A DNA stretch of 64,000 bases from Alphaproteobacteria bacterium (GTDB taxonomy: Bacteria; Pseudomonadota; Alphaproteobacteria; UBA8366): positions 1-64,000 of the forward strand of contig JANQKC010000021.1 in NCBI GenBank assembly GCA_028281325.1, in the 5' to 3' direction. Below the pieces are notes generated by a model. The model made no database searches. It saw nothing but the letters and a program-made list of their open reading frames with translations, and was not told the DNA's origin. Below, piece by piece: positions 47,597 to 63,874 of this stretch. The first letter of the stretch is position 1. Each line of letters opens with the position of its first letter. Position numbers and translations under genes: made by a program.

Positions 47597-47959
47597 CTAT
47601 TTTTCCCCATCCGATTTGTCAGGGGTGTCGTGCCGCACGTCGTCCCGCCTCAGGTCATCGATGACCGTCCCCTCCCAAAGCGGCACACCCTCGCGGTAGG
47701 CCGCGCGGCCGATCATATGCGCCGCGACCGGCGCCGTGACCAGGAGAAAGACGATCGTCGCCAAGGCGCGCGTGACGATGCCGCCTTCACCGAAATGGAA
47801 CGCCAACGCCAGCAGAATCAACCCGCAGCCGAGCGTGCCCGCCTTGGTCGACGCATGCATGCGAATCAACACGTCCGGCAACCGCAGCACGCCCAGCGCC
47901 GCCACGAACGCGAAGAATCCGCCAAGCACGATAAGCACCGCCACCACAATCTCCATCAT
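47597..47959 (-). CDS. mrpG: Mrp Na+/H+ antiporter subunit G
   Basis: A 120-residue, three-helix MnhG/PhaG subunit (GVLRLPDVLIRMHASTKAGTLG is diagnostic). Last gene of the seven-gene Mrp operon; it overlaps mrpF by 4 bp. Confidence 0.93.
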   Translation of the reverse strand: MMEIVVAVLIVLGGFFAFVAALGVLRLPDVLIRMHASTKAGTLGCGLILLALAFHFGEGGIVTRALATIVFLLVTAPVAAHMIGRAAYREGVPLWEGTVIDDLRRDDVRHDTPDKSDGEK

Positions 47960-48288
47960 GGCTTCGCCTCGTCGCCGGAAGAAGAGGAAGATTCCGCCGC
48001 CGAAGGGTCGGGGCCCACGCGGCGTTCGATGTATCGGGCCAGCACCACCGTCGCCAAAAAGGCGACGAGCGCCAGCGCGACGCCCACGTCAAGGAATGCC
48101 GGCCGGTCGGACGAGATCGCAACCAGAGCGCAAAACCCAACCGCCAAGATCGTCATAAGGTCGAGCGCCACGACACGGTCCGCGGCGCTCGGACCAAGCA
48201 GGAGGCGGATAAAGGAAAGCACGAAGGCCGCAACCAGGCAAAAGAAGCCGATATCCACCGCCCATGCGAGAATGACACCGCTTTCCAT
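47956..48288 (-). CDS. mrpF: Mrp Na+/H+ antiporter subunit F
   Basis: A 110-residue, three-helix MnhF/PhaF subunit (LLGPSAADRVVALDLMTILAVG motif, and FLDVGVALALVAFLATVVLARYIE). It overlaps mrpG by 4 bp and shares one base with the mrpE stop. Confidence 0.93.
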   Translation of the reverse strand: MESGVILAWAVDIGFFCLVAAFVLSFIRLLLGPSAADRVVALDLMTILAVGFCALVAISSDRPAFLDVGVALALVAFLATVVLARYIERRVGPDPSAAESSSSSGDEAKP

Positions 48289-48761
48289 CAGTTGAAGGCC
48301 TCCAGCACCTTTCGTTCGAGACCGTCCTTGATCTCGCGCCGGCTCTCCTCCGGGTCATCGATGAACATCGCATGGACATAGAGCGTCTTACGGTCATCGG
48401 ATACGTCGAGGCTCAACGAACCCGGCGTCAACGACACGAGATTCGCCACCACCATGATCTGGCCGTCGTCCTTCACATCGAGCGGCACCGCGATGATGCC
48501 GGGCCTGCTGCGGTGATCCGGCGTGATGACGTCCCACACCACGCGGAGGCTGGACACGACCAACTCGAACAAGAAGAAGAGGGCGAGTCCGATCACCCGC
48601 CAGACGCGGCCGAAATACGTGGTCTCGCCGAACAACGGCCGAACGGTCCAGAGCGCGAAATAGCCGACGACCAAGCCGCTCGCCAATGTCGGCCACGCGA
48701 AACTGCCCCACAGCGCGGCCCAGCCGGTCGCCAAAAGCCCATTGAGCAACAACAGCGTCAT
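48288..48761 (-). CDS. mrpE: Mrp Na+/H+ antiporter subunit E
   Basis: A 157-residue MnhE/PhaE subunit: helices near 5-50 and 58-80, then a cytoplasmic domain with RPGIIAVPLDVKDDGQIMVVANLVSLTPGSLSLDVS, the typical MrpE core. Overlaps mrpD by 4 bp. Confidence 0.93.
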   Translation of the reverse strand: MTLLLLNGLLATGWAALWGSFAWPTLASGLVVGYFALWTVRPLFGETTYFGRVWRVIGLALFFLFELVVSSLRVVWDVITPDHRSRPGIIAVPLDVKDDGQIMVVANLVSLTPGSLSLDVSDDRKTLYVHAMFIDDPEESRREIKDGLERKVLEAFN

Positions 48762-50260
48762 CGTGCACCTCGCAACACCGTCTCAACATAGGCGGCGGGA
48801 TTGAGAAGCTCCGCCGCGGATCGCTCGGCCGCGTTCACGAACGGCTCGGGATAGAAACCGATGCACAGCGTCAACGCCGCCAGCGCGGCGATCGGCAACA
48901 TCAGACAGGCCGTTTCCCGACGCCCCAACCGGCCCTGCACCTTCAACTCGCCATCGGGGTGCGGTTTCCAGAACCCTTCGCCCCAAATCTTGGTCATCGA
49001 AAACACGGTCAACAGCCCGACCAGCAGGGCGAACCCGGCGACAACGTAAGCTTCCGCATCGAGGCTCGCCTTGACCAGCAGAAATTTCGCCCAGAAGCCC
49101 GAAAGCGGTGGAAAACCGGCGAGCGAAAAGGCCGGAATGAGAAACAATACCCCCAAAACCGGGCGCGACTTATACAAACCGCCAATCCGGCCAAGGTCGA
49201 AGGAGCCCGTAAGGCGCTGCATGACGCCGCTGACCAGGAACAGGTTCGCCTTCACGATGATGTGGTGCACCAGATAAAAGACGGCGCCGGCGATCGCCAA
49301 CGGCGTGTATAACGCCAGCCCGAGGATCATGTAGCCGATCTGACTGATGATGTGGAACGAGAGGATCTTGCGGACCTGGCTCTGCGCCGCCGCACCCAGC
49401 ACGCCGGTCACCATCGTCAAAACGGCGACGACCAGCAACGCGCCGTGGGTATAGGCAATGTCGTGAGTGAAGATCAGCGTGAAGGTGCGGATCAACGCAT
49501 AGACGCCGACCTTGGTCAGGAGCCCCGCGAAGATCGCCGAGATGGCGACGGGCGGCGTATGGTAGGATGCCGGCAACCAAAAGAAGAGCGGAAACACCGC
49601 CGACTTGATCCCGAAAGCGACCAGAAACAGCACCGCGACCACCGTGAGCAGGCCGGTCTGATCGCTCGCCTGCACGGCGACATGCAAATCCGCCATATTG
49701 AGCGTACCGGTCAGACCGTACAGCAAGCCGATGCCGCCCAGGAAGAGGATCGTCGACACCAGATTGAGCGCGACATACTTGATCCCGCCGTCCAACTGCG
49801 CGCGGTCGCCGCCCAACACCAGCAGGCCGAAGGATGCGATGAGCATCACCTCGAACCAGACATACAGATTGAAGATGTCACCGGTGAGAAAGGCGCCGCA
49901 GACGCCGGCAATCAGAACATGAAACAGCGCATGGAAACCGAGCATCTCACGGCGGGCGTCGATGTCGGCCAAGGCGTAGACCGCAACCGCCAAACCCGAA
50001 ATGGCGGTGATCAAGACCATGATGACGCTCAACATGTCCGCGACGAGCGTGATGCCGAACGGCGCGGACCAGCCGCCCATTTGCGTCGCAAGGATACCGT
50101 CGGTCCAGACCCGCGCCACCAGCCAGACGGCCACCCACAATAACGCGGCGCTGCCCGCAATGCTGATGGTCCGTTTTAGCCGCGGCGCGGACCGGGTGGC
50201 GAATGTCAGGATCGACGTCGCGAGCGGAATCAGGATGGGCGCCGCAAGAAGCCAGGTCAT
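48758..50260 (-). CDS. mrpD: Mrp Na+/H+ antiporter subunit D
   Basis: A 500-residue proton-translocating subunit homologous to complex I NuoM/N. It has about 14 helices, the key glutamate in LYVWFEVMLIASFGLL, and the lysine/His-rich discontinuous helices (GIKSAVFPLFFWLPASYHTPP; FHIISQIGYMILG). Together with MrpA it drives Na+/H+ exchange. Overlaps mrpC and mrpE by 4 bp. Confidence 0.94.
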   Translation of the reverse strand: MTWLLAAPILIPLATSILTFATRSAPRLKRTISIAGSAALLWVAVWLVARVWTDGILATQMGGWSAPFGITLVADMLSVIMVLITAISGLAVAVYALADIDARREMLGFHALFHVLIAGVCGAFLTGDIFNLYVWFEVMLIASFGLLVLGGDRAQLDGGIKYVALNLVSTILFLGGIGLLYGLTGTLNMADLHVAVQASDQTGLLTVVAVLFLVAFGIKSAVFPLFFWLPASYHTPPVAISAIFAGLLTKVGVYALIRTFTLIFTHDIAYTHGALLVVAVLTMVTGVLGAAAQSQVRKILSFHIISQIGYMILGLALYTPLAIAGAVFYLVHHIIVKANLFLVSGVMQRLTGSFDLGRIGGLYKSRPVLGVLFLIPAFSLAGFPPLSGFWAKFLLVKASLDAEAYVVAGFALLVGLLTVFSMTKIWGEGFWKPHPDGELKVQGRLGRRETACLMLPIAALAALTLCIGFYPEPFVNAAERSAAELLNPAAYVETVLRGAR

Positions 50261-50655
50261 GCGTTTGCCCCGTCCTTGCCGTCACTTGCCGGGACCGCCG
50301 TCGGCGACTCTCCCTCGGCGATGCGCATGGCGTCGCCGTCGACCGTGCCGAGAACGCGCCAAGACCGATAGACCAGCACCAGCGTGAAGGCGAGCAAGCC
50401 GAAGCCGATGACAATCGCGGTCAGGATCAGCGCCTGCGGCAGCGCATTCGCCGCCTGGACCGCCGGCTCGGACAAGCCATCGGGCACAAGCGGCGGTTCG
50501 GCCTGGGTCAACCGGCCCGAGGCGAAGATGATCAGATTCGCCGCATTGCTCATGAGAATGAGGCCGAACAGGAATTTCACGACGTTGCGCCGGAGCATGA
50601 GATAGACGCTGGCGGCAACCAAAGCGCCGACGAGAACGGCCATGACGGTTTCCAT
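50257..50655 (-). CDS. mrpC: Mrp Na+/H+ antiporter subunit C
   Basis: A 132-residue NuoK-like subunit (VYLMLRRNVVKFLFGLILMSNAANLIIF; DALPQALILTAIVIG-type segment as ANALPQALILTAIVIGFG). Three helices and a hydrophilic tail. The ATG at 50655 lies 2 bp after the mrpB stop; a longer upstream frame is antisense-like noise. Confidence 0.93.
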   Translation of the reverse strand: METVMAVLVGALVAASVYLMLRRNVVKFLFGLILMSNAANLIIFASGRLTQAEPPLVPDGLSEPAVQAANALPQALILTAIVIGFGLLAFTLVLVYRSWRVLGTVDGDAMRIAEGESPTAVPASDGKDGANA

Positions 50656-50657
50656 CG

Positions 50658-51077
50658 TCAGTCCCCCTCTTCGAGCGCGAAGACGAAGGTGAGGACGGCC
50701 CCGATGACGACCAGATAGACGCCGATATCGAACATCAAGACGGTGCTTATCGGCAGCCCCTTGCTGTCCCCGTCGGCGCCGGCAAACCACCAGAGTCCGG
50801 TCAGGAAGGCGTCGCCCGCAACCGCCGCCAACAGTCCCGCAACCAGGGCCACGCCGAGCCCGATCATGGCGATCATGCGAGGGTCCATCCGCAGCGCGCG
50901 CCGGGCAGCGGCCGCGCCGTGTGCGATCGCGTAGAGCGCGTATCCGGTCGCGGCCAGCAAACCGCCGATAAAGCCGCCGCCCGGCTCGTTGTGGCCGCGC
51001 AGCAGCATAAACAGCGAAAAGACCAGCATCAGGCTGACCAGAATGCGGGTCGCGGCGCTAAGGATTACCGAATTCAT
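50658..51077 (-). CDS. mrpB: Mrp Na+/H+ antiporter subunit B
   Basis: A 139-residue MnhB-domain protein with four helices ([26 protein letters not shown] is the signature). Here it is a separate gene, not fused to MrpA as in some rhizobia. Overlaps mrpA by 4 bp. Confidence 0.93.
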
Positions 51078-53374
51078 GAGCCGTCTCCCGAAGCAGGCCG
51101 CGCCTTGAGGACGGCATAGGCCGCCAGTGCAGCCACGGCGACGACGGCAATCTCACCAAAAGTATCCAACGCCCGGAAGTCCACCAGGATGACGTTGACG
51201 ATGTTGCGGCCGAATGCGGCGGGAACGCTGTTTTCCTCAAAGAACACCGTGAGCGACCGATCGAAAGGCGTCTGCGTTACCGCAAGAAGCACCAACGCAA
51301 CAACCGTGCCGGTGCCGAGCGCCAGCGCGGCGTCGCGCCGCCGGCTCCAGCGCCGGGCCGATTCGACCGCGCTGAAATGCGGCAAGCGCAGCAACACGAC
51401 AGCGACCAGAATGACCACCAACGATTCGACGAGGAGCTGCGTGATCGCCACGTCCGGCGCGCCGAACAGCAGGAACAGAAGCGCGACCCCGACCCCGACC
51501 GCCCCAAGCGCCGTCATGGCCATCAACCGAGAGCTGGAAATGACGACCACGATCGTCGCCGCGAAGACAAGCGCGGCCGCGCCCCATTCGGCCAGCGCCA
51601 AGTCGGGCCAGCGGTCGGGCAAGGCGATGGCGTCGCGCAAGACCAATGTCGCCCCGACCGACAGGGCCAGCACCGCGAAGATAACCGCAATGTAGCGGCG
51701 CAATAGGCCAACCTGAATCCAGTCCGTTTGAAACGCCGCGATCCAGCGCAGACCGTGAAGGCAGCGGTCGTACACCTCGTCTCCCGAGATCATGCGGGCA
51801 TCGATCGCCGCGAGGATTTTGCGCAGACGCCAATGGCCGAAATAGATCGCGACGCCGAGCGAGAACGTCAGGATGCTCAGCGCAAGCGGGACGTTGATGC
51901 CATGCCACAGCGCCAGCTTGACCGTTTCCGGACGCCCGAGAATCGACGCCACCGCCGGCTGGACCAACGTATCCGCAACAAGCGCCGGCGCCAGTCCGAA
52001 CGCCAGTCCGGCGACAGCCAGCAATAAGGGACCGATCCACATGCGAATGGGCACTTCGATCGGCGGCTTGGGGGTGGATGTCCGCTTGCCGTAGAACGGC
52101 AGGAGCGCCACGATACCGGCGACGCCGACCATCAGCGCGCTGGCGATGACGGCGGTAGTCGCAACCACGACCGGTTCCGAAGCGATCGCCAGCGCGCCTT
52201 CGTATTTCAGTTCCTTGCCGATGAATCCGAGAAACGGCGGGAAACCCGCCATCGACAACGCCGACGCCGTGGCGATGAAGAGCGTTATCGGCATCACCCT
52301 GGCAAGCCCGCCCAATTGTCCGATCTCGCGGGTTCCCGTGCTGTAGTCGATATTGCCGACCACCAGGAACAACGCCGCCTTATAAAGAGAATGCACGATC
52401 AAGAAGGTGACCGCGGCGGCGACGGCGACCGTCGCCTCGGCCCCCAGGAACATGGTCAGGGTGCCGAGCGCCATCACCGTGGTATAGGCCAGCATCATTT
52501 TGAGATCGGTCTGCCGGATTGCGACCAGTGAGGCGAATATCGCGGTCACCGCACCGAAGATCGTCAAGGTCCAGATCCAGGCGTCGGTCCCGCTCAACAC
52601 CGGGTGCATCCGCGCCAACAGGTAGATGCCCGCCTTCACCATCGTCGCCGAATGCAGGAAAGCGCTGACCGGCGTCGGCGCGGCCATGGCATTCGGCAGC
52701 CAGAAATGAAACGGAACCTGCGCCGACTTGGTGAAAGCGCCGACCAGGATCAGGGTCAGGATCGCGCCATAATGCGGATGTGCGCGGATCAAATCCCCGC
52801 TCGCAAGGATTTCCGACAGCTCGTAACTGCCGGCCGCGTTACCCAACATGATGAACCCGGCAAGCAGGACCAAACCGCCCGCGCCGGTCACCAAAAGCGC
52901 CTGAAGCGCGCAACGGCGCGCCTTGGCCGATGCGTGGTCATAGCCGATCAACAGATACGACGTGATCGTCGTGACTTCCCAGAAGACGAACAGCGTGATC
53001 AGGTTGTCCGCCAGGACCAGCCCCAACATCCCGAGCATGAAGAGCGAGAGATAGAGAAAGAACCGGTTGAAGTGGGCATGGCCCGCCAGGTAGGCGGAAG
53101 AATAGGTCAGGATAATGATACAGATGACGCTGATCAAAAGGCCGAAGGTCAAGCTCAGCCCGTCAATCAGAAATGAAAATTCGACGTCCATACTGGGCGC
53201 CCACGGCACGGCCAACCGCACCGTCTCGCCGGTCGCGATTGTCGGCAGGAGAGTCGCCAGGAACAGGGCCGCGGCAATTGCCGGCAGCAACGCCAAACCG
53301 ACCGTCCCCATAGACGCCGGCGACAGCCGCACCGGCCTCGGCCGGTCCGTCCCATTGTTCGCCCGTTCAGTCAT
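51074..53374 (-). CDS. mrpA: Mrp Na+/H+ antiporter subunit A
   Basis: A 766-residue NuoL-like subunit with a C-terminal MbhD/MbhE-type extension (VEESLV-type region [19 protein letters not shown], then [32 protein letters not shown]). The key glutamate is in [17 protein letters not shown] and the translocation lysine in [24 protein letters not shown]. First gene of the Mrp operon; the YdcH-like gene lies 176 bp upstream on the same strand. The pump controls cytoplasmic pH and Na+. Confidence 0.94.
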
Positions 53375-53550
53375 GATCGTATCAGGTTTCTTCGTCTTTT
53401 CTCGTTGTCGTTCAGATCATGCATCGGGCCGGCCGACACACTCAGGTCACTGTATCACACCCCTCTCGGCAACCGGCCGCCCAGGGGGCGGCCGATACCT
53501 ATCACACGGGAAGATTCAAAACACGAGACAGTTTCAGTGTTAGAACAGAA

Positions 53551-53823
53551 TTATTGTGCCCGTCCAGTTCCGGCCAAGTTGGACCCCAAATCCGTATCGC
53601 CGGACTGCCCATCGATTAGGCGCTCGATCGCGGCGATTGCATCCTTGGTGTGCAGCTTACGCCGTTTCATCTCCTGGATCGCGAATGTGTTCACGGCCGG
53701 CCGCGCGGTTTCCCGGCCGATCTGGTCTTCCAACTGTCGATGCGTTCGGACGAGAGAGTCATACCGGCGGGCGATCTCGGGCCACTGGGGGGCATGCGAT
53801 TTCACGGAAACGGTAGCGCTCAT
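53551..53823 (-). CDS. YdcH/DUF465-like small protein
   Basis: A 90-residue helical protein with the DUF465 pattern: RRYDSLVRTHRQLEDQIGRE, then IQEMKRRKLHTKDAIAAIE. Its Gly-rich tail is longer than usual. It overlaps the isocitrate dehydrogenase stop by 4 bp, implying translational coupling. DUF465 proteins have no proven biochemical function. Confidence 0.78.
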   Translation of the reverse strand: MSATVSVKSHAPQWPEIARRYDSLVRTHRQLEDQIGRETARPAVNTFAIQEMKRRKLHTKDAIAAIERLIDGQSGDTDLGSNLAGTGRAQ

Positions 53824-55334
53824 TGGTTCTCTCCTTGTGCCAACGTGAATCCGGCAGTGCCATCGAAATGCTGCAGTTTCTCAACATGCATCCAACGATG
53901 AATATCGCCGATCCGGGTCAACAGATCGCGTATATCCGCATCCGTGCAGGATCGGTCGCGGTCGGTCCATGCGAACCGGCAGCGCCAATGGTTCACGGTA
54001 TCCGTATGGCCGGTTCGGCCCGGGTAAACCTTCGTGCCGCGATTGGAGATCATCGAGAGCCGGAAGCCCGACGCGAAAACCGCCGTTTCCAGACTTTGGC
54101 CCAGCGCATCGGCGTTGCCCTTCCATTCGATGAAGACATCGACGCCAGCCATCTCGCGCGTGACTTCGCCGAGCGGGCCGTGAACCGCATCCGGAATCTG
54201 CAGCGGCGCGTATGTCCGATTTTCCAAGTGGCGGGACGACCTGCCGAAGTTGTCGATCACGGCGCCGGTGAAGGCGGCCGTGCCGACCGACTCGGCATCG
54301 CGCGCGATATCCGCGGTGAGATGGGTCCCGTCCTCCAGCGTACAGTACAGCGCATTTTCGACCACATCCGCCACTTCCTGTTGGCCAATATGCCGCATCA
54401 TCATGACTGCCGACAGAAGCAGCGCGGTGGGATTGGCCAGCCCCTGTCCCGCGATGTCGGGCGCCGACCCGTGGACCGCTTCGAACATGGCGACCTGACG
54501 GCCGAGGTTTGCGCTGGGCGCCAAGCCGAGGCCGCCGACCAAACCGGCGGCAAGGTCGCTCAGGATGTCGCCATTCATGTTGGTCGTGACCACGACGTCG
54601 AAGGATTCCGGCGCAACCACCATCTTATGGGCGCAGTTATCGACCACCAGGTGACCGGCCTCGAACTCCGGGAAGTCGGCGGCGACCGATTCGAAGGTCG
54701 ATTTGAACAGACCTTCGGTCAATTTCATGATGTTGGCCTTGGTCGCGCATTCGACCTTGTGACGCCCCTCGGCCTGCGCCAAGGCAAAGGCGAACCGTGC
54801 GATCTTTTCGCTGCCTTTGCGCGAAATCAGCTTGAGGCACTGCGCGACGTCCGGCGTCTGCATATGTTCGATGCCGGCGTAGAGATCTTCCACGTTCTCG
54901 CGGACGACGACGAAGTCGATATTCCGACCGCTGAACGGGGTCGCGATTCCCGGCAAGGCGCGGACGGGCCGCACGTTGGCGTACAGCTCGAAAATCTTGC
55001 GCAACGTGACGTTCGCACTCTTTTCGCCGAACCCGACCGGCGTTTCGAGCGGCCCTTTCAGCACAACGCCCGCGTTCTCGATAGCGTCCAAGGTTTTATC
55101 GGGCACGCCGGACGCAATGCCGTCGCGGAACACATTGGCGCCGGCGTCGCATATCCGCCAATCGATCGACGCCCCTGCTTCGTCGAGCACGCTCATCGCC
55201 GCTCGCATGACTTCGGGACCGACACCATCGCCGGGCAGGGCGACGACCGGATGGGTCACCTGTTTTGCGCGGTCCGGCGACTGCGATCGACCCGCGCCGG
55301 GCGACACGCTAGAAGAGTCTGCCTCGTACATCAT
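53820..55334 (-). CDS. icd: Isocitrate dehydrogenase, long form with extra C-terminal domain
   Basis: A 504-residue beta-decarboxylating dehydrogenase. The first about 360 residues carry the family motifs: [48 protein letters not shown], the aspartate-rich [20 protein letters not shown] and [25 protein letters not shown]. The remaining about 140 residues match the C-terminal domain of the Thermus/Rickettsia-type isocitrate dehydrogenases of about 500 residues. Substrate isocitrate is the best call; coenzyme choice is uncertain. It may be a second, stress-related isozyme given its neighbours. Confidence 0.85.
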
Positions 55335-55843
55335 GGCGTGTCACCGCCCGCTCGACCGATTCGTATCCAGCCTTGCCTCTTTTTCATTGGGCGCTCCCCA
55401 GGTTTCAGGTTTCATCGAACGGTCGCCGAGTAGATATGTGGGCGCGCGCCTTATTGTCCCAATCGATATGGCGTCGATGCGTGATAGGTTTTTCCGATTG
55501 CGGTCGATCCCTATGGCAATGGAAAAACAATCGGCGCACTTGACCCCACCCATGCGGACACCACTTCGCCGAGAGTCCCGTGTTCGACGGCGGCGCCGGG
55601 TCGGGGATGTTTACCGGCGTCTCGACTCCGAGATAAAGCCGACACCATGCGCGGGCAAACAGGCCGTCGCGACGCCCCCTTTTTCCGGATTCGCGGTAAT
55701 CGCCTGCGCAGGACGGCGTAGCCCAACAAGCTGTGCGTTGAGCCACGACCGTCAAAGACTGACGTCTATCGCAGCGCCTGATCGCGCCAACCGAGACCGA
55801 TGCGCTTTTCGTGCGGAATATCCTATGAGGCGATTTCGTCGCG
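55335..55843. other. 509-bp gap with promoter region of the icd transcription unit
   Basis: No credible gene. Frames of up to 116 codons on the minus strand here have arginine/proline-rich, non-protein-like translations. The gap contains an OxyR-type element at 55484-55498, about 150 bp upstream of icd. No terminator is seen after atpE. Confidence 0.55.
55484..55498. promoter_or_regulatory. OxyR-type element upstream of icd
   Basis: ATAG-GTTTTTC-CGAT fits ATAG-N7-CTAT with one mismatch and includes the LysR T-N11-A core. It is about 150 bp upstream of the icd start codon and shares the GNTTTTTCC-type centre with the other elements of this block. Confidence 0.45.
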
Positions 55844-56071
55844 TCACATGACGAAGAGGATGATGAAGGAGATGATCAGCGCGAACAGGGCGATCGCTTC
55901 GGTAAGCGCAAATCCCAGCAAGCCGACGGGCTGTAGTTTCTCACCCGCACCGGGATTGCGCGCCACGGCGGAAATCCAGTCGGAGAAAATCTTCCCCAAC
56001 GCCATCGCGACGCCAAAGAGGGGAAGGATGGCCACCGCGGCCGCCAGTAGCCGCATACCTTGGTCAGTCAT
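55844..56071 (-). CDS. atpE: F-type ATP synthase subunit c (orphan F0 pair)
   Basis: A 75-residue, two-helix proteolipid with the polar loop VARNPGAG (R38, N39, P40) and ion-binding carboxylate E58 in GFALTEAIALF. Residues flanking E58 (A59, F63) and L25 in helix 1 replace the Ser/Tyr/Gln of Na+-binding rings, so a proton site is predicted. It follows atpB by 58 bp. No b/b', delta or F1 genes follow; this looks like an extra a/c pair rather than the main operon. Confidence 0.9.
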   Translation of the reverse strand: MTDQGMRLLAAAVAILPLFGVAMALGKIFSDWISAVARNPGAGEKLQPVGLLGFALTEAIALFALIISFIILFVM

Positions 56072-56129
56072 GACGATAACTCCTTTTATTATAACAATTG
56101 CGTGATGGGGTTAGAGGACGGCGCGGCCG

Positions 56130-56897
56130 TTAGTGGCCATGGAGCGCGTCCCGGATGTAGAGCGACGTGATCAGGATGAAGATGTAGGCCTGGACCAGGA
56201 AGATCATGAACTCGAAGGCGTACAGCGCCACCATCATTATGATCGGAAACACGTTGAACGCGACGCCGGTCATCCCGAGCGCGTCGGTGAACATGACGCT
56301 GAAATCGGCAAACAGTTTCAGCATGATGTGACCGGCAAGGATGTTCGCGAAAATTCGAACGCCCAATGTCACCGGTCTGAACAGATAGGAGATTACCTCG
56401 ATGACGATGAGCAGCGGCGCCAGGTAACCGGGCGTTCCCTCCGGCAGGAAGAACCGGAAAAAACCCATTCCCTGCGTGCGGAAGGCCAACACGTTGACAT
56501 AGGTGAACACCAGAAGCGCCAGAGCCATCGTCACGATCAGATGGCTCGTGAAGGTGAATTTGATCGGCGTCAGGCCGAACCAACTGCCGAACAGGATGAA
56601 GACGAATAGGCAGAACACAAACGGTATGGCGGGCGCCGCAGCCGGCCCGGCGGATCGGGTGACGGTCTGGGCGACGAACAAATACACCGCTTCGGCGCTC
56701 GCTTGCAGCCGGCCCGGAACCAGCGCGCGATCTCGCATGCTGTAGATCAAAAACGCGCTGACCAGAAGCGTGGTCGTGACCATCGCTTGCGCGGATGTTG
56801 TGAATGATAGGTCGAATCCGAACAGCTCGATCGGAATCAGGACGTCGATCTCGAATTGCCGTATCGCGTAGGGCAATTCCGGCTCATTTGCCGCCAT
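56130..56897 (-). CDS. atpB: F-type ATP synthase subunit a (orphan F0 pair)
   Basis: A 255-residue, polytopic subunit a. The essential arginine is R181 in LGVRIFANILAGHIMLKLF. The N-terminal QFEIDVLIPIELFG and GLTPIKFTFTSHL segments match alphaproteobacterial AtpB. It precedes atpE in the usual order but atpI and the b-type subunits are missing. A possible small gene lies 50 bp upstream. Confidence 0.92.
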   Translation of the reverse strand: MAANEPELPYAIRQFEIDVLIPIELFGFDLSFTTSAQAMVTTTLLVSAFLIYSMRDRALVPGRLQASAEAVYLFVAQTVTRSAGPAAAPAIPFVFCLFVFILFGSWFGLTPIKFTFTSHLIVTMALALLVFTYVNVLAFRTQGMGFFRFFLPEGTPGYLAPLLIVIEVISYLFRPVTLGVRIFANILAGHIMLKLFADFSVMFTDALGMTGVAFNVFPIIMMVALYAFEFMIFLVQAYIFILITSLYIRDALHGH

Positions 56898-57187: not shown

Positions 57188-57577
57188 AAAAACGCCTCTC
57201 CTTCTCATATCGGATTACCGGACCCGCATTCGCAACAGCTGCCGCCGATCACACCTGGATGGTCGCGGCGACGCCGCGCGCCGCAACGTTAGGAAGCCGC
57301 CTCTCGGGCGACGCCGCCGCGCGTGAAGGCCGCCGCGGCACCTCCAGACACGGTTGACGCCGATACCGGATGGCGGCCCCCATCCATAGGATGAGCAGCG
57401 CAAACGGCGCGATGGCGGATGTCATGATTTTCGGCACTTTCAGGTCCCGGTCCGGGCTTGGCGAGTTTCACGGTGGCAATGTGACGTTTGACTTTTAATC
57501 AGGCCAATCGATTTCTAATGAAACTTCGATAGAAAATTCCAACCAGCGAATGCTGGACATCACGAGGCCCGCCCCCA
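57188..57577. other. 390-bp divergent intergenic region (atpB side and OxyR-like gene)
   Basis: No convincing gene. A 58-62 codon minus-strand frame near 57249-57437 has one hydrophobic stretch but an Arg/Pro-rich remainder and no ribosome site. Close to the OxyR-like start the DNA is AT-rich and contains an inverted repeat and an OxyR-type half element. Confidence 0.5.
57512..57543. promoter_or_regulatory. Dyad and OxyR-type half element upstream of the OxyR-like gene
   Basis: TTTCTA (57512-57517) and TAGAAA (57530-57535) form a 6-bp inverted repeat 12 bp apart. ATAG-AAAATTC-CAAC (57529-57543) shares its left half with the ATAG-N7-CTAT elements nearby. It lies 35-66 bp before the regulator start, suited to autoregulation. 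Confidence 0.45.
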
Positions 57578-58498
57578 ATGCCCACCGTTAAACAACTGCG
57601 CTATCTCGTCGCGATCGCCGACACGCTCCATTTTCGGCGCGCGGCGGAAATGACACATGTCACACAACCTACCTTGAGCGGACAGCTTCGAGAGCTGGAA
57701 ACCCGCCTTGGCGTACAATTGGTCGAACGCAGCCGCGCGCGCGTTGTGTTGACCCCCGTCGGAAAGGAGATCGCGGCGTTGGCACGCACCGTCCTACGCG
57801 ACGTGCAGCGCATCACCGAGATCGCCAAACATGGCCAGCAACCGCTTGGCGGCACAATCCGACTCGGCGTGCTGCAAACGCTTGGCCCATATCTTTTCCC
57901 GCACATCCTACCGGAGTTGCATGAAAACTATCCGGACTTAAAACTTTATATCCGGGAAGGCATGCCGGCCGCCTTGATGTACGCACTGGAGGAAGGACAG
58001 CTTGACCTGCTGCTGTTCCCCTTGCCCGTGCGCAGCAGCGACCTGCAGACAACGCGGCTGTTCCGCGAGCCGCTTTGGATCGCCGCCCCGGCGGACCATC
58101 GGCTGGGCGACAAGGAGCTTGCCGACCGGTCCGACCTCAAGGGCGAGACCGTCCTATCGCTGGAACGCGGATACCGGCTGCACGACCAGGTGAGCCACCT
58201 CTGCGAACAGTACGGCGCAACGCTGTCGCTGGACTATGAGGGGACGAGCCTCGATACCTTGCGGCAGATGGTCGCGATGGGGATGGGTTTGTCCTTCTTC
58301 CCGTCGCTATACGTCCAATCCGAAATCCTCAACGACAAGCAAGTCGTCGCACGGCAGATGCGGTCGCATCCGCCGAACCGTATGATCGGCATGGTTTGGC
58401 GAAAGAACAGCGCCAGCCAAACCGACTACGTGACGCTGGCGTCGCTGATCCGTGAAATCTTGAAAACCCGGGTTACCGGGATCACCGTCATGAAGTGA
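57578..58498 (+). CDS. OxyR-like LysR regulator lacking the peroxidatic cysteine
   Basis: A 306-residue LTTR closely resembling OxyR: helix-turn-helix HFRRAAEMTHVTQPTLSGQLRELE, GVLQTLGPYLFPHILPEL (OxyR-type T-GPYL), GTSLDTLRQMVAMGMGLSFFPSLYV. In the redox loop (LERGYRLHDQVSHLCEQYG) the position of E. coli C199 is R200, while the C208 equivalent is kept as C209. The protein therefore cannot form the usual peroxide-sensing disulfide and may sense something else or be constitutive. It sits between the atp pair and the COX4-like gene. Confidence 0.9.
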   Translation: MPTVKQLRYLVAIADTLHFRRAAEMTHVTQPTLSGQLRELETRLGVQLVERSRARVVLTPVGKEIAALARTVLRDVQRITEIAKHGQQPLGGTIRLGVLQTLGPYLFPHILPELHENYPDLKLYIREGMPAALMYALEEGQLDLLLFPLPVRSSDLQTTRLFREPLWIAAPADHRLGDKELADRSDLKGETVLSLERGYRLHDQVSHLCEQYGATLSLDYEGTSLDTLRQMVAMGMGLSFFPSLYVQSEILNDKQVVARQMRSHPPNRMIGMVWRKNSASQTDYVTLASLIREILKTRVTGITVMK

Positions 58499-58510
58499 CG
58501 GCAACAACCG

Positions 58511-58756
58511 CTACAGCAGGAAGACGGCGAGCGCGACCAGAATGGCGGCGATCCCAATCGTCGACCATTTGGTCAGCGCCACGAAGTTTTCCCAAGCTTC
58601 GACATGCGGTTCGATATCCTGGTGCATTGGCCGCGCCGACGATTGCAGGAGCGCTGCAGCGCCGGCGGCGCCATTGGCGTGCCCAGCGGCATCGTTATGG
58701 TCGGCGGGAACCGATGCCTCAGCCCCTGTTTCTGATCCGGTTCGACTCGCTTCCAA
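58511..58756 (-). CDS. aa3-type cytochrome c oxidase subunit IV-like peptide
   Basis: An 81-residue protein whose C-terminal 35 residues (AWENFVALTKWSTIGIAAILVALAVFLL) match the bacterial COX4_pro_2 family: a conserved W..F..LTKWS followed by one helix. The N-terminal 45 residues are an Ala/Gly-rich extension. The TTG at 58756 is the likely start because GGAGG lies five bases upstream. No oxidase core genes are nearby, so it is an isolated accessory subunit. It converges with the OxyR-like gene. Confidence 0.75.
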   Translation of the reverse strand: MEASRTGSETGAEASVPADHNDAAGHANGAAGAAALLQSSARPMHQDIEPHVEAWENFVALTKWSTIGIAAILVALAVFLL

Positions 58757-59176
58757 TTTTTCCTCCGGTTCATTTCGTCGGGCCGGCGCACACCCATCCG
58801 GCCCCTTTTAGATGGACAAAGGAAGCAGCCAAACAATTCAATTGAAGGAAATGATTTAATAGGAAAAGTCTATCAAAACTCGCCGATTGATTTTTCCTAT
58901 CAAACTGCGCCCGTATTCGAATTGGAGCAATCAGCGGCGAAGCGCCATACTTCTTCCGAACAAACGAATAGGTTCTGTCGCTTTACGCGACAGTAGGGAT
59001 GTATCTTGCTTCCGTGTGTTTCACATAAACTTACTTTGATTAAGGTCGTTACAGACTCCGTTTCCGCGCGCCTCGCCGCCCTGCGCGGAGACGGGACGCC
59101 GTCGCCTGAAGCGACGACGGCGTAGGGCGCATCAACCCGCCCTGGCCGCGCGGGGGGATAGGGAACAGTCCCCTCC
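58757..59176. other. 420-bp intergenic region with tandem OxyR-type elements
   Basis: No credible gene; a 103-codon minus-strand frame overlapping the uspA end is not protein-like. It contains the two elements at 58859-58900, a palindrome CGCCGTCG/CGACGGCG (59097-59104 with 59115-59122) and the stem at the uspA stop. Confidence 0.55.
58859..58900. promoter_or_regulatory. Tandem OxyR-type elements upstream of the COX4-like gene
   Basis: ATAG-GAAAAGT-CTAT (58859-58873) is an exact ATAG-N7-CTAT; ATTG-ATTTTTC-CTAT (58886-58900) matches with one change. The outer arms form a 9-bp perfect inverted repeat (ATAGGAAAA with TTTTCCTAT), and inner ATCAA/TTGAT also pairs. The elements lie 100-145 bp upstream of the TTG start of the COX4-like gene. 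Confidence 0.6.
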
Positions 59177-59182
59177 CTATCC
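59156..59182 (-). other. Stem-loop across the uspA stop codon
   Basis: GGATAGGGA (59156-59164) and TCCCTATCC (59174-59182) form a perfect 9-bp stem with a 9-nt loop overlapping the stop codon. No T-run follows on the minus strand, so it may protect the 3' end rather than terminate. Confidence 0.4.
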
Positions 59183-60130
59183 CTCCAGCGCAACCGGCGA
59201 AACAAAGCCATCCGGTTTAATCGTCAGCACGGAACAATCAACCTGCCGCAGCACGTCTTCGGCCGTGGTGCCAATGAGGAATCCGGCAATGCCACCGCGG
59301 GTCGCCGTGCCCATCACGATGAGGTCGACGGCATGTTCCGCCACCAACTGCGGGATCAGCAGGCTGGGATTTCCGCGCGGCAGATGCAATTCGTAAGACA
59401 GGTCTTCCAAATCCACTTTGCCGAGGAGACGTTTGATAGCCGCCTCGCGCGCCGACGTGTTCACGGTGTGCAATCGCTCGCGTATCGTGTCGTCGATCTC
59501 CGACCGGCTGGTATCGAGATCGGCGCCGACATAATCCCAGGCGTTCACGATATCCAGCCGACACCCCTCCATCCGCGCCAGCGAGCTGGCCATTTCGAGA
59601 ATCTTCACGTCCAAGGGATTGAGCGGGGCATCCGCGGGACCCGGATCGACTGCGGCAAGAATCCGATGGAAGCGCCGTTCCGCCTTCGGCTTCATCACCC
59701 AGACCGGACACGGACATTTACGCATCACATGCATGGAGTTGCTGCCGAAGGTAATCGACCGCAAACCCCGGAGACTGTCCGCCGTCATGACCACGAGGTC
59801 GAAGCCGTCGCGCAGGACGGCCCGAACGATCGCCAGAAAGACCTTGTCTTGAGCGACCGCCACATCCACCTGGACTCCATCCCGCCGCAACGGGTCGACC
59901 AACCGCTCGAGCAACGCCCGCCGTTCATCGAAGTAGCGGCCTTGCAGATCACGCTGTTCGGACACCGAAGACCCGAACGGCGCCGCCGCCAGGCTCGGCA
60001 ACCGCTCAATCACCTCAAGCACGGTCAAGCGCGCGCCATTGCGCTTCGCCAACGCGGTCGCCCGGTCCAAGGCCGCCTCATCGCCGACGCTTTGGTTGTA
60101 AAGCATCAGGATATTCTTAAAGCGTTGCAT
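59177..60130 (-). CDS. Tandem universal stress protein (two UspA domains)
   Basis: A 317-residue protein with two UspA domains, about 1-148 and 150-312. ATP-binding glycine motifs are visible as FGSNSMHVMRKCPCPVWVM in the first domain and MGTATRGGIAGFLIGTTAEDVLRQVDCSVL in the second. Tandem Usp proteins of this kind respond to oxygen limitation or stress. An exact ATAG-N7-CTAT element lies 107 bp upstream of the start codon. Confidence 0.92.
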   Translation of the reverse strand: MQRFKNILMLYNQSVGDEAALDRATALAKRNGARLTVLEVIERLPSLAAAPFGSSVSEQRDLQGRYFDERRALLERLVDPLRRDGVQVDVAVAQDKVFLAIVRAVLRDGFDLVVMTADSLRGLRSITFGSNSMHVMRKCPCPVWVMKPKAERRFHRILAAVDPGPADAPLNPLDVKILEMASSLARMEGCRLDIVNAWDYVGADLDTSRSEIDDTIRERLHTVNTSAREAAIKRLLGKVDLEDLSYELHLPRGNPSLLIPQLVAEHAVDLIVMGTATRGGIAGFLIGTTAEDVLRQVDCSVLTIKPDGFVSPVALEG

Positions 60131-60436
60131 CTAATCGTCCCGCTAACAGCAAGGGATTGATCCTCTGGGATATTCGATATCGCATGAATGTGGTGCCGCG
60201 CGACAAAGCGAATGAATGATTGTTTCCGCTGTTTTTATAGAAATTTCCTATCAGTCTCAGGCTCGGGAGGCGCCAGGCAGAGCATCGTCGTCACCTGATG
60301 CGCCGACACGCCGATCCGTAAAAGTCAGGCGTCAGGATGCGGAATTTTTGATTTGGTAAAATCTGTGCCACCCTTAGACCTTAGCACATCATGGTAGGAT
60401 GAGCGTTCCGTCACTATCACGCAGAGGAGGTCTCGA
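60131..60436. other. 306-bp divergent region between uspA and the selenoprotein gene
   Basis: Contains the OxyR-type element at 60237-60251 on the uspA side. On the selenoprotein side I see AT-rich DNA at 60345-60372 and a strong GAGGAGG ribosome site just before 60437, but no clear operator. Confidence 0.6.
60237..60251. promoter_or_regulatory. OxyR-type element upstream of uspA
   Basis: ATAG-AAATTTC-CTAT is an exact ATAG-N7-CTAT element with the LysR T-N11-A core, 107 bp upstream of the uspA start codon. Confidence 0.6.
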
Positions 60437-61321
60437 ATGGAGCACGTGCGCTACATTGACCGCACAGCAGAGGACTATCGTCGCCAGGGATACGATACCG
60501 AGTATAAATGGGCCCATCACACCGACGCGCCCTTCACGCCACTGACGAAACCCCTTTCGGAATGCACGGTCGGGCTGATCGGCACGAGCGAAGTGGCCGT
60601 GCGATTCGATCCGGAGACCGAGGAAGACCCGATCGTCGAGGAGGATTTCCGCGGCATTTACGCGATCCCGGGGGACGTGCCGACGGACCGCTTCTACAGC
60701 CGGACGTCATCCTTCGACCGGAACGCGACGCATCTGGACGACGTCAACGCCTACTACCCGGTCGATCGCATGCGCGAAGCCGTCGCCGACGGCGTGATCG
60801 GCGCGATGCCGGACCGGTTCTACGGCGCCTACAACAACTATAGCCAACGCAAGGTGCTGACCCAGGAAGCGCCGAAAGCGCTCGAACTGTGCCGCGAAGA
60901 CGGCGTCGATGCGTTGGTGATGGTCCCTCTGTGACCGGTTTGCCATCAGACCGTGAGTCTGATCAGCCGATACATCGAAGAGCATGGCATTCCGACGGTC
61001 GTCATCGGCGCCGCGCGGGACATTGTCGAACATTGCGGCGTCGCCCGCTTCCTGTTCGTCGATTTCCCCTTGGGCAGCCCGTGCGGCGAACCCGGCAATG
61101 TCGAGCAGCAGCGCGGCATTTTCCGGCAAGCGCTCGATCTGCTTGAAACCGCGCCGGGCCCGATGACCACGCAGGAGGCCGGCTACACCTGGAGCAAGGG
61201 CGACGAGTGGAAACGCCTGGTCTTCACCGAGGAACAACCGTGGCAGGACGAAGAGACGAAAGCCGAATGGCTCGCCCGTAAGGAAGAGTACCGGCGGCTG
61301 AAAGAGGAAGGGAAAGTCTGA
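60437..61321 (+). CDS. GrdB-like selenoprotein (glycine/sarcosine/betaine/D-proline reductase selenoprotein B family), Sec at UGA 60932-60934
   Basis: Conventional translation stops at TGA 60932-60934, but the same frame continues without further stops to 61321, giving 294 residues with selenocysteine as residue 166. The motif around it reads VPL-U-PVCHQTVSLIS, that is UxxCxxT, as in selenoprotein B-type reductases. A bacterial SECIS hairpin lies directly downstream. The C-terminal part (GIPTVVIGAARDIVEHCGVARFLFVDFPLG) matches the family. GGAGG precedes the ATG. The stop overlaps the glutaredoxin gene by one base. A GrdB-like reductase role is inferred; the substrate is unknown. Standard gene callers will split or truncate it. 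Confidence 0.9.
60945..60963 (+). promoter_or_regulatory. Bacterial SECIS element
   Basis: ATCAGAC (60945-60951) and GTCTGAT (60957-60963) form a perfect 7-bp stem with loop CGTGA. The apical loop starts 17 nt after the UGA and has G as its second base followed by U, meeting the known bSECIS rules (loop 16-37 nt after UGA, G among the first two loop bases). It lies within the coding frame, as in all bacterial SECIS elements. Confidence 0.85.
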
Positions 61322-61581
61322 TGGGCGACGACGCAGCCGGGGCGGCCAAGGAGGTCATCGTCTACTCGTCGCCCTTCTGCGCGCCTTGCGAAGCGCTCAA
61401 GAAGTTCCTGAGCGAGCGGGATGTCGATTTCACGGTGCGCGATCTGATGATGGACGAGGACGCCCAGGACCGGCTGGAAGAATTCGGGATCCGGTCGACG
61501 CCGGCGCTGGAAATCGATGGCCAGCTTTACGCGGGCGGCGCCCTCAACCCGCAGAACGTGAAAGACCTGTTGAACCTGTGA
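61321..61581 (+). CDS. Small glutaredoxin/NrdH-like protein
   Basis: An 86-residue thioredoxin-fold protein with redox motif FCAPC (C20, C23), the cis-proline region RSTPALEIDG and a C-terminal helix. Its ATG overlaps the selenoprotein stop (TGATG), so the two are translationally coupled. It is a likely electron donor to, or disulfide resolver of, the selenoprotein; this is inferred from the coupling. Confidence 0.88.
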   Translation: MGDDAAGAAKEVIVYSSPFCAPCEALKKFLSERDVDFTVRDLMMDEDAQDRLEEFGIRSTPALEIDGQLYAGGALNPQNVKDLLNL

Positions 61582-61627: not shown

Positions 61628-63874
61628 ATGAGCGGCGCGACGATTTACGAGGCACCCCGACCGACGGCAAAACCCGGCGAGACGGTGGTGACGACGACCT
61701 GCGGGCATAATTGCGGCGGCCGTTGCGTGGTCAACGCCCATGTCGTCGACGGCAAGATCGACCGAATCTCGACCGACTCACGCCGCTGGGACCCGGACCA
61801 TCCGCCGTTGCCTGCCTGCGCGCGCGGCGTCGGCCAGATCGAGCGGGTCTATCATCCCGACCGCCTCAAATATCCGATGCGCCGCACCGGACCGCGCGGC
61901 TCCGGCCAATTCGAGCGGATTTCCTGGGACGAGGCGCTCGACACCGTCGCCCGCGAGATGCTGCGCGTGCGCGACCAATACGGCAACGCGGCGATCCTCG
62001 ACGGGTCGCGGTCTGGCACCACGTCCAGCCTGCACGGCCGCAACGCCGCGAAACGCTTTCTGCACATGTTCGGCGGCTGCACGACTCTCTGGTCGAACAT
62101 GTCCTGCGAGGCCGAGGTCTTCGCCATCCGCCACACCTTCGGGCATGACGTGAACTACAAGGCAGCCGGGCGCGAGCCGACGGACTACGTCAACTCCAAG
62201 CTCATCCTCATGTGGGGATGGTCGCCCGGCGACGGCACCTTCGGCACCGGCACCATGCCCTATCTGAAATGGGCGAAGGAGAACGGCACCCGGATCGTCT
62301 GCGTCGACCCACGCCGCACCCGGACCAGCAAGCAACTGACCGACGAGCATATCTTCATCCGGCCGTCCACCGACGCAGCGGCGCTGATCGCCATGACCCA
62401 GGCGATCGTGGCCGAAGGCCTGCACGACGCCAATTTCTGCCGACGCTACGTCCAAGGTTTCGACGAAGACACCCTGCCGCCGGAAGCGCCCGCCGGCAGT
62501 TCCTATCTTTCCTATCTGACGGGCGATGCCGACGGCGTGGCCAAGACGCCGGAATGGGCCAGCCCGATCACCGGCATCCCGGCCAAGACGATCCGGCAGC
62601 TCGCCATCGACTTCGCGACCAGCAAGCCCGCCGCGATCCACGGCGGCTACGCGCCGGGCCGAACCGCCTACGGCGAGCAGTTCCACCGCGCCGCCTATGC
62701 GCTCGCGGCCGTCACCGGCAGCATCGGCACGCCGGGCGGCAACGCCGGGCCCAGCAACGGGGCGACGGGCCGCGCCGGGATCAAGATGCTGCCCGCCGGC
62801 AAGAACCCGATCGAGTCGAAGGTCGCAACGCCCTTCCTCGGCGATCTGCTGCTGAAGGGCAAGGCGGGCGGGTTCCCGGCCGACATCAAGTTGATCTATT
62901 CGACGGGCGGCGACCTGTTCAACCAATGCTCCAACGCGAGCAAGCTCGCCAAGGCCTTGGACAACGTGGAATTCATCGTCGGCCAGGATCATTTCCTGAC
63001 CCCAACGACACGCCATGCCGATATCGTCCTGCCGGCGACGACCTTCTGGGAACGCAACGACGTGCACACCCCGTGGGCCGGCGCGGGGCATTACGGCATC
63101 TACATGCAGCAGGCGATCGAGCCGATGTACGAATGCCGCAACGACATGGATATCTATGCGGACCTCGCGCAGCGGGTCGGCATCAACGGCTACAACCTGC
63201 AAACGGAAGAAGAATGGCTGCGCGAACTGACGGCGGACGTGGTCGACGATTTCGACGCCTTCCGGGAGAACGGCGTGGCGCGGATGCCGAAACCGGACGA
63301 TGCTGTGGCCTTCGCCAAACAAATCCGCGATCCGGAGAACCACAAGTTCACCACGCCGTCCGGCAAGATCGAAATCTACTCCAGTTTCCTCGGCGAGAAC
63401 CCGGACCCGTACGGTCTGGGCGAGATTTCGCCGATCCCGACCTGGGTGCCGCATGCGGACCTGCCGGACGATGCGGCCTATCCGCTGCGTCTCTGCAGCC
63501 CCAAGTCGCGGGCGCGCACGCATTCGATCCATGGCAACCAGCCGAAACTCGCCAAGGTCGACCCGGACGACGTGTGGATTCATCCGGCGGACGCCGAGGC
63601 GCGCAGCATCGCGCAAGGCGACCGGGTCAAGGTGTTCAACGGCTATGGGGCCACGACACTGGCGGCGCGGGTCACCGAGGACGTGGCGCTTGGGGTCGTG
63701 TCGATCAACGAAGGCGCCTGGTTCACGCCGGATGCCGACGGGACCGACACCTCGGGCTGCGCCAACGCGGTGACGGCCGACACCGCCGCGCCCAGCGGCG
63801 CGATGACCTACAACACCAATTTCGTGGAGATCGCCGCCGCCGACCGGATGTCAGACCGCCCCTTTGCCGCGTAG
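61628..63874 (+). CDS. Molybdopterin-dependent oxidoreductase, DMSO reductase family
   Basis: A 748-residue molybdo-bis-MGD enzyme. An N-terminal [4Fe-4S] motif is formed by C25, C29, C33 and C64 (TTCGHNCGGRC...PACARG). Near residue 159 the segment WSNMSCEAEV aligns with the molybdenum-ligand region of DmsA-type enzymes, suggesting Ser159 as ligand. The C-terminal MGD-binding domain is seen in RLCSPKSRARTHSIHGN and WIHPADAEARSIAQGDRV. There is no Tat signal, so a cytoplasmic enzyme is likely. It follows the glutaredoxin gene by 46 bp on the same strand. Substrate unknown. Confidence 0.9.
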   Translation: MSGATIYEAPRPTAKPGETVVTTTCGHNCGGRCVVNAHVVDGKIDRISTDSRRWDPDHPPLPACARGVGQIERVYHPDRLKYPMRRTGPRGSGQFERISWDEALDTVAREMLRVRDQYGNAAILDGSRSGTTSSLHGRNAAKRFLHMFGGCTTLWSNMSCEAEVFAIRHTFGHDVNYKAAGREPTDYVNSKLILMWGWSPGDGTFGTGTMPYLKWAKENGTRIVCVDPRRTRTSKQLTDEHIFIRPSTDAAALIAMTQAIVAEGLHDANFCRRYVQGFDEDTLPPEAPAGSSYLSYLTGDADGVAKTPEWASPITGIPAKTIRQLAIDFATSKPAAIHGGYAPGRTAYGEQFHRAAYALAAVTGSIGTPGGNAGPSNGATGRAGIKMLPAGKNPIESKVATPFLGDLLLKGKAGGFPADIKLIYSTGGDLFNQCSNASKLAKALDNVEFIVGQDHFLTPTTRHADIVLPATTFWERNDVHTPWAGAGHYGIYMQQAIEPMYECRNDMDIYADLAQRVGINGYNLQTEEEWLRELTADVVDDFDAFRENGVARMPKPDDAVAFAKQIRDPENHKFTTPSGKIEIYSSFLGENPDPYGLGEISPIPTWVPHADLPDDAAYPLRLCSPKSRARTHSIHGNQPKLAKVDPDDVWIHPADAEARSIAQGDRVKVFNGYGATTLAARVTEDVALGVVSINEGAWFTPDADGTDTSGCANAVTADTAAPSGAMTYNTNFVEIAAADRMSDRPFAA

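What the first reader, a model, noticed from the sequence alone, without database searches (positions are those of the whole stretch)
57578..58498. OxyR paralogue with C199 replaced by arginine
The protein keeps OxyR features (TLGPYL segment, TSLDTLRQMV loop, C208 equivalent C209) but has R200 where the peroxidatic cysteine should be. It cannot use the standard disulfide switch. A lone resolving-position cysteine may be modified otherwise, or the protein may be a locked activator or repressor.
Basis: partly seen in the sequence, partly recalled or inferred. Interest (0 to 1): 0.68.

Follow-up and report, generated by a model that had tools for sequence, protein, structure and literature searches.

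The report
Cysteine-less OxyR relative beside sodium antiporters
A protein that public annotation usually calls a hydrogen-peroxide sensor belongs to a branch that lacks the peroxide-sensing cysteine, keeps an OxyR-like DNA-binding site, and sits beside genes that pump sodium and protons across the membrane, so it probably controls salt or pH balance rather than peroxide defence.

Summary
In detail: a 306-aa LysR-type protein (57578-58498 +) has R200 at E. coli OxyR's C199 position and C209 at C208; C209 is its only cysteine. It is not a lone oddity. It belongs to a clade (100/100 support) of OxyR-family proteins in which position 199 is R/K/H/Q/T/A/V/N and never C (42 of 42 dereplicated members). 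C208 is kept in 34 of 42. The same genome has a separate OxyR with both cysteines. Members sit beside Na+/H+ antiporter genes (Mrp or the unrelated NhaA) at 53 of 76 loci, against 0 of 39 cysteine-containing OxyR loci. Usp, SbtA, carbonic anhydrase or isocitrate dehydrogenase genes recur there. An OxyR-type palindrome, ATAG-N7-CTAT, lies in 50 of 71 promoters of the regulator, and further copies precede usp, icd, nhaA/sbtA and mrpA. Best reading: a derived OxyR relative that kept OxyR's operator, rebuilt its sensor pocket and took charge of Na+/H+ (and bicarbonate) homeostasis. The signal is unknown: Na+, pH or a small anion. 'Locked' or 'lone-cysteine sensor' is unlikely, although one lone-cysteine OxyR (Deinococcus) is published. 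No expression or binding data exist.

The parts
57578..58498 (+). OxyR-family LysR-type regulator without peroxidatic cysteine (R200, C209)
57525..57547 (+). degenerate OxyR-type operator in the regulator's own promoter (GATAG-N7-CAAC), matrix score 13.3
58855..58877 (+). operator with perfect ATAG-N7-CTAT core (score 31.3), about 100 bp upstream of the small COX4-like gene
58882..58904 (+). second, weaker operator 27 bp from the previous one (score 20.3)
60233..60255 (+). operator with perfect ATAG-N7-CTAT core (score 27.8), about 105-115 bp upstream of the usp start; also 5' of the selenoprotein-like gene at 60437
55480..55502 (+). weak operator-like site (score 7.8) upstream of icd; the sister species has a strong one before icd
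59177..60130 (-). UspE-like universal stress protein (recurrent neighbour, operator upstream)
58511..58756 (-). 81-aa membrane protein, COX4_pro_2 (aa3 oxidase subunit IV-like)
56130..56897 (-). second F0 ATP synthase subunit a gene (atpB paralogue)
53820..55334 (-). NADP-dependent isocitrate dehydrogenase, alphaproteobacterial type (recurrent neighbour in part of the clade)
51074..53374 (-). MrpA, Na+/H+ antiporter subunit A
50658..51077 (-). 139-aa ORF in the MrpB position (by place and length; not scanned)
50257..50790 (-). MrpC (homology starts at residue 46 of this ORF)
48758..50260 (-). MrpD
48288..48761 (-). MrpE
47956..48288 (-). MrpF
47597..47959 (-). MrpG

Best explanation
The gene encodes a derived OxyR-family transcription regulator that no longer senses peroxide by a thiol switch. 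It binds OxyR-type operators (TTGATAGA-N5-TCTATCAA, core ATAG-N7-CTAT) in its own promoter and in nearby promoters. Through them it controls a local set of genes for Na+/H+ exchange (Mrp or NhaA), with usp and, by lineage, Na+/bicarbonate transporters, carbonic anhydrase or isocitrate dehydrogenase. Shown by computation: the missing cysteine is a clade-wide trait, the neighbourhood recurs, and the operator is conserved in the matching promoters. Inferred: that the protein binds this operator, that it regulates these genes, and whether it activates or represses. Also inferred: its signal is Na+, alkaline pH or low CO2, read through a small ligand (bicarbonate, or a carboxylate such as 2-oxoglutarate) held in a rebuilt, arginine-rich cleft (R126, R/K/H200, R268, Y245, S224, D226). 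I put about 0.7 on the Na+/H+ homeostasis role and no more than 0.3 on any one ligand.
For: Clade: all 42 non-C199 rows form one group at 100/100 on a tree built without the loop columns. Neighbours within 6 kb: antiporter genes at 53 of 76 loci (Mrp 42, NhaA 11), Usp 44, SbtA 8, ICDH 6, SulP plus carbonic anhydrase 2; canonical OxyR loci 0 of 39 antiporter, 0 of 39 Usp, 1 of 39 SbtA (all 39 controls have C199 and C208). Dereplicated: 28 of 42 rows against 0 of 39. Mrp and NhaA are unrelated transporters and both recur. Named plasmid records agree at 6 of 7 read: mrp in Tateyamaria, Haematobacter and Ketogulonicigenium; nhaA in Ensifer, Novosphingobium and Actibacterium, the last with carbonic anhydrase and usp. 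Operator: ATAG-N7-CTAT in 50 of 71 upstream regions, against best palindromes of 5-8 in ten shuffles. At matrix score 17 or more there are 85 sites in 919,725 bases, 74 of them just upstream of the regulator or a theme gene. In the window the best-scoring distinct sites cluster at this locus. In the sister species, sites precede usp, the small COX4-like gene and icd. Pocket: R126 41/42, R268 42/42, Y245 42/42 where OxyR has A (67 of 73), D226 42/42, P130 36/42 where OxyR has T or S (73 of 73).
Against: No expression, binding or mutant data exist. In the window itself the site in the regulator's promoter is degenerate, the icd site is weak, and no site precedes mrpA directly. The sister genome G001 has this regulator but no match to MrpA; its only NhaA hit is on another contig. 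14 of 42 dereplicated rows have no antiporter within 6 kb, 10 of them in the second subclade, though three of the others (L018, L048, L054) sit on contigs cut short. The matrix was made from the regulator's own promoters, so only sites elsewhere test it independently: 21 such sites, 10 upstream of another theme gene and 4 more upstream of the COX4-like gene. Genome-wide, perfect 8-base cores are no commoner than the reversed control (14 against 16). Canonical OxyR promoters carry the same perfect core in 5 of 39, so the operator is shared with OxyR and not proof of which protein binds. Loci share ancestry, so counts are not independent.
Confidence: 0.7

Rival explanations
1. A one-cysteine OxyR: C209 alone is oxidised by peroxide (sulfenic acid or mixed disulfide) and the protein is still a peroxide sensor, as published for Deinococcus radiodurans OxyR.
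For: C209 is kept in 34 of 42 dereplicated members. The D. radiodurans protein has one conserved cysteine, C210; the paper names T201 as the place of the missing one and shows C210 is needed to sense H2O2 (passages of PMC2225504).
Against: C209 is lost in 8 of 42; five members without it (L024, L028, L039, L045, L049) keep the mrp context, and all five have operator sites scoring 26 or more upstream. T129 of the peroxide pocket is P in 36 of 42. No catalase or peroxidase was identified among the neighbours I looked at, except one Ensifer plasmid where katG and a second gene annotated as H2O2-inducible activator begin about 3 to 5 kb away, and Haematobacter, where iron-uptake efeB is in the stretch shown. 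The own genome has a two-cysteine OxyR.
Confidence: 0.12
2. A sensor-dead, locked regulator that competes with canonical OxyR for shared operators, setting a fixed tone of expression.
For: The operator core is the OxyR type and also occurs in 5 of 39 canonical OxyR promoters. In P. aeruginosa, Cys199 mutants act as constitutive activators and Cys208 mutants as locked repressors (passage of PMC8289212).
Against: The cleft carries new invariant residues (Y245, D226, R126) rather than drift. Sites cluster at this regulator's own antiporter loci, while antiporters were not found at 39 canonical OxyR loci.
Confidence: 0.1
3. An inorganic-carbon / 2-oxoglutarate regulator like cyanobacterial CcmR (NdhR), to which Na+/H+ antiport is subordinate. 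It overlaps the best explanation and differs in what the signal is.
For: The recurrent partners SbtA, SulP plus carbonic anhydrase and isocitrate dehydrogenase fit. CcmR represses sbt, mnh and ndh-I3 operons with 2-oxoglutarate and NADP+ as co-repressors (passages of PMC3401165; that mnh is Mrp-type is recalled). CcmR with 2-OG is among the structural matches (5y2v, Z 20.9).
Against: Antiporters without carbon genes are the commoner context. CcmR is a CbbR homologue (PMC3401165) and is no closer in fold than many other LysR regulators.
Confidence: 0.25

Closest known systems
OxyR (E. coli, P. aeruginosa)
   Same: Best sequence and structural match over the full length; regulatory domain within 1.8 A over 204 residues of reduced E. 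coli OxyR; operator core ATAG-N7-CTAT (OxyR consensus recalled, not from a call).
   Different: No C199, usually no T129, A244 replaced by Y; neighbours are Na+/H+ antiporters, not peroxide-defence genes.
D. radiodurans DrOxyR (one-cysteine OxyR)
   Same: Lacks one of the two conserved cysteines and keeps one; the paper names T201 as the place of the missing cysteine (PMC2225504).
   Different: DrOxyR is shown to sense H2O2 through C210. Here the remaining cysteine is not conserved throughout the clade. Whether the two belong to one clade was not tested.
NhaR (E. coli), LysR-type Na+-responsive regulator of nhaA
   Same: LysR-type regulator linked to a Na+/H+ antiporter gene; [quoted passage not shown]
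   Different: E. coli NhaR gave no score above the reporting limit to nearly all OxyR-like rows, and it is not among the 25 best NCBIfam matches of the window protein.
CcmR/NdhR (Synechocystis)
   Same: LysR-type regulator whose regulon includes the mnh operon and SbtA (PMC3401165).
   Different: About 22-24% identical over the structural alignments; a CbbR homologue; cyanobacterial.

Membership tests
OxyR, two-cysteine peroxide sensor | Peroxidatic cysteine at position 199 | tested here: not met
   R200 in the window; C in 0 of 42 dereplicated clade members
OxyR, two-cysteine peroxide sensor | Resolving cysteine at position 208 | tested here: met
   C209 in the window; 34 of 42 in the clade
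OxyR, two-cysteine peroxide sensor | Groups with OxyR rather than other LysR-type regulators | tested here: met
   Whether the clade lost C199 or branched before it was fixed is open: AU test p 0.384
OxyR, two-cysteine peroxide sensor | NCBIfam OxyR equivalog cut-off | tested here: inconclusive
   246 bits against 329, but no genome among 192 alphaproteobacterial ones passed it either
OxyR, two-cysteine peroxide sensor | OxyR-type operator ATAG-N7-CTAT | tested here: met
   50 of 71 promoters in the clade; binding itself not tested; consensus recalled
OxyR, two-cysteine peroxide sensor | Responds to H2O2 | not testable with these tools
   needs purified protein or a mutant
One-cysteine OxyR (DrOxyR type) | Lone sensing cysteine conserved among orthologues | tested here: not met
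   Lost in 8 of 42, with the mrp context kept in five members without it
NhaR | Sequence relation to E. coli NhaR | tested here: inconclusive
   NhaR scored below the reporting limit for nearly all rows; its branch on the tree was too long to place
LysR-type transcription regulator | N-terminal helix-turn-helix plus periplasmic-binding-like effector domain | tested here: met

The most novel reading that the evidence does not exclude
OxyR's fold and operator were turned into a direct sensor of Na+, pH or bicarbonate: position 199, the peroxidatic cysteine in OxyR, here carries a basic or polar side chain that helps hold a non-redox signal and switches Na+/H+ antiporters on or off. It would be a second LysR-type Na+/pH-responsive gene-control protein, independent of NhaR.
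Probability: 0.3. Interest if true: 0.82.

Novelty: new variant of a known kind. Interest (0 to 1): 0.62.

Why it matters
RefSeq names several of these proteins 'hydrogen peroxide-inducible genes activator' (5 of 7 records read). If this reading is right, the name is wrong for a whole clade across several alphaproteobacterial orders, with two gammaproteobacterial members. It would show how a thiol-switch sensor can be recast while its operator is kept, so two paralogues in one cell share a DNA code but answer different signals. It also gives concrete candidates for a gap stated in print: only one protein, NhaR, is validated as a Na+-selective gene-control factor (PMC9337991). The conserved operator and the divergent promoters make the idea directly testable.

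Tried and rejected
Rejected: sequencing error or decayed gene (intact ORF, clade-wide trait, invariant pocket residues). Rejected: non-OxyR LysR clade. Rejected: R200 as a fixed arginine. Not decided: loss of C199 versus branching before its fixation; C199 rows form one group in 2% of bootstrap trees, but the AU test does not reject it (p 0.384). E. coli NhaR could not be placed (branch length 10).

Led nowhere: genome-wide perfect operator cores in the own genome are at chance level. I looked at ORFs around three operator hits elsewhere in the genome and drew no conclusion. Paper searches for an OxyR-like or LysR regulator of Mrp/NhaA in this group found none: searches returned nothing of that kind in their listings, one search returned NhaR papers, and searches returned no clade of this kind. 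The library holds open-licence papers only. Papers: passages read of PMC3401165, PMC8289212, PMC9337991, PMC2225504; all others were seen as listings only.

Rows dropped before counts: the tree left out L058_2, L059_4, L005_0, L007_1, L091_0 and near-copies by identity. The operator counts left out L063 (a C199 protein), L052 and L059 (near-copies) and the duplicate loci L209-L211. The neighbour count kept L052, L059 and L209-L211 (the last three repeat L011, L019, L018), so its 76 loci include at least three repeats; one search gives the dereplicated count, in which the two tandem copies of locus L055 count twice. Some loci end near the gene and could not show all neighbours (for example L015, L018, L035, L048, L054).

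Full report
What was checked. The ORF at 57578-58498 is intact and encodes 306 aa. R200 aligns with E. coli OxyR C199 and C209 with C208; C209 is the only cysteine. The best NCBIfam model is OxyR (246 bits), and the best solved structures by sequence are OxyR proteins. The same genome carries an ordinary OxyR on another contig, 34% identical, with GHCLRDQVYEAC. An AlphaFold model (mean pLDDT 91) matches full-length P. aeruginosa OxyR and the reduced E. coli regulatory domain (1.8 A over 204 residues, Z 25.1).

A clade, not a single oddity. In a tree of 122 rows built without the cysteine loop, all 42 non-C199 OxyR-like rows form one group (100/100), apart from 73 C199 rows. The tree places the group inside C199 proteins, but a smaller tree does not reject C199 proteins as one clade (AU p 0.384). 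So 'C199 was lost' is likely, not shown. At position 199 the 42 rows have R 16, K 9, H 7, Q 6 and T, A, V, N one each. At position 208: C 34, A 6, G 1, T 1. New conserved features appear (E. coli numbering): Y at 244 (42 of 42; A in 67 of 73 C199 rows), D at 225 (42 of 42), R at 125 (41 of 42), P at 129 (36 of 42; T or S in all 73 C199 rows), and R at 266 kept (42 of 42). This is a rebuilt and constrained pocket, not decay.

Neighbourhood. In the window, the minus strand on the regulator's upstream side carries atpB, icd and the mrp genes (47597-56897); a Usp gene lies on the other side. Across the clade, within 6 kb, Na+/H+ antiporter genes occur at 53 of 76 loci (Mrp 42, NhaA 11), Usp at 44, SbtA at 8, ICDH at 6, AtpB at 5, and SulP with carbonic anhydrase at 2. 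At 39 canonical OxyR loci, each verified to have both cysteines, the counts are 0 antiporters, 0 Usp, 1 SbtA. Dereplicated by the tree, 28 of 42 against 0 of 39 (Fisher p about 1e-11, which ignores shared ancestry). Mrp and NhaA are unrelated proteins, so their exchange under one regulator clade argues for function rather than for inherited linkage alone. Seven named plasmid records were read: nhaA divergent in Ensifer canadensis and Novosphingobium resinovorum; carbonic anhydrase, nhaA and two usp genes in Actibacterium; mrp divergent in Tateyamaria (after usp), Haematobacter and Ketogulonicigenium; Alloyangia has a calcium/sodium antiporter and a SLC13 permease. RefSeq calls five of the seven 'hydrogen peroxide-inducible genes activator'. 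Residue 199 is R in Ensifer, Tateyamaria, Novosphingobium and Alloyangia, H in Actibacterium, and another non-cysteine residue in Haematobacter and Ketogulonicigenium (read by eye).

Operator. An unbiased count of paired 4-mers in 71 upstream regions put ATAG-N7-CTAT first, in 50 of 71; shuffled sets gave at most 8 for any palindrome. The extended form is TTGATAGA-N5-TCTATCAA, often with ATTGATCCAATCGAAA about 30 bases upstream. This is the OxyR half-operator (consensus recalled). In the 64-kb window only two perfect cores occur (0.03 expected): one upstream of the small COX4-like gene, one upstream of usp. A weight matrix ranks four sites at this locus first in the window (58855, 60233, 58882, 57525); a weaker one lies upstream of icd (55480, score 7.8). 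In all clade loci examined, 85 sites reach score 17 in 919,725 bases and 74 lie within 350 bases upstream of the regulator or a theme gene. Of 21 sites away from the regulator's own promoter, 10 precede usp, icd, mrpA, nhaA/sbtA or atpB, and 4 precede the COX4-like gene in the window and its sister. In the sister genome the extended-motif hits include usp, COX4-like and icd promoters on the regulator's contig. Canonical OxyR promoters have a perfect core in 5 of 39, so the two paralogues may share operators.

Mechanism. Shown: clade-wide absence of C199, conserved pocket, recurrent antiporter context, conserved operator. Inferred: the protein binds this operator, regulates itself and the divergent genes, and reads Na+, pH or a small anion in the cleft. 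Na+/H+ antiport, bicarbonate uptake, carbonic anhydrase and isocitrate dehydrogenase could all be wanted under alkaline, low-CO2 or salty conditions. The cyanobacterial CcmR offers a parallel: its regulon includes sbt and mnh operons, and 2-oxoglutarate and NADP+ are its co-repressors (PMC3401165). NhaR is the only validated Na+-selective protein regulator according to PMC9337991.

Evidence the other way. The window's own promoter site is degenerate and no site lies directly before mrpA. The sister species lacks a MrpA match. 14 of 42 rows show no antiporter. A one-cysteine OxyR that does sense H2O2 is published for Deinococcus (PMC2225504), so the missing C199 alone does not exclude peroxide sensing. 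The variable C209 and lost T129 make it unlikely here.

Verdict. This is a new variant of a known kind: an OxyR-family clade with its sensor changed and, most likely, its targets moved to sodium/proton homeostasis.

Noticed in passing
60437-61321 (+): PrdB-like (D-proline reductase family) gene with an in-frame TGA read as U166 in a UxxC motif (UPVC); the genome has a tRNA-Sec over the Rfam cut-off (76.7 bits). Probably a selenoprotein split by standard gene calling. It is followed by a glutaredoxin-like gene (61321-61581) and a DMSO/selenate reductase-family gene (61628-63874)..
   Followed up: partly
60233-60255: The operator before usp also lies in the promoter region of the divergent selenoprotein-like gene, so that operon could be a further target.
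   Followed up: no
56130-56897 (-): Second F0 ATP synthase subunit a gene, 48% identical to a copy elsewhere in the genome (C10:114259-114969); copies also lie by the regulator in L012, L015, L017 and L208, in L208 with an operator 101 bases upstream..
   Followed up: partly
L022:7185-8123, L020:7324-8268, L055:7177-8115 and similar: Tandem second copy of the regulator with T or A at position 199 in some Rhodobacterales, sometimes next to acetyl-CoA synthetase and adenylate kinase genes..
   Followed up: no
L276:1-5915: Ensifer canadensis plasmid pT173d: this regulator with nhaA lies a few kb from katG and another gene annotated as H2O2-inducible activator, which may hint at where the paralogue arose..
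   Followed up: no
51074-53374 and L011: The sister species (L011/G001) lacks the mrp operon and the atpB copy here; its regulator is directly divergent from icd..
   Followed up: partly
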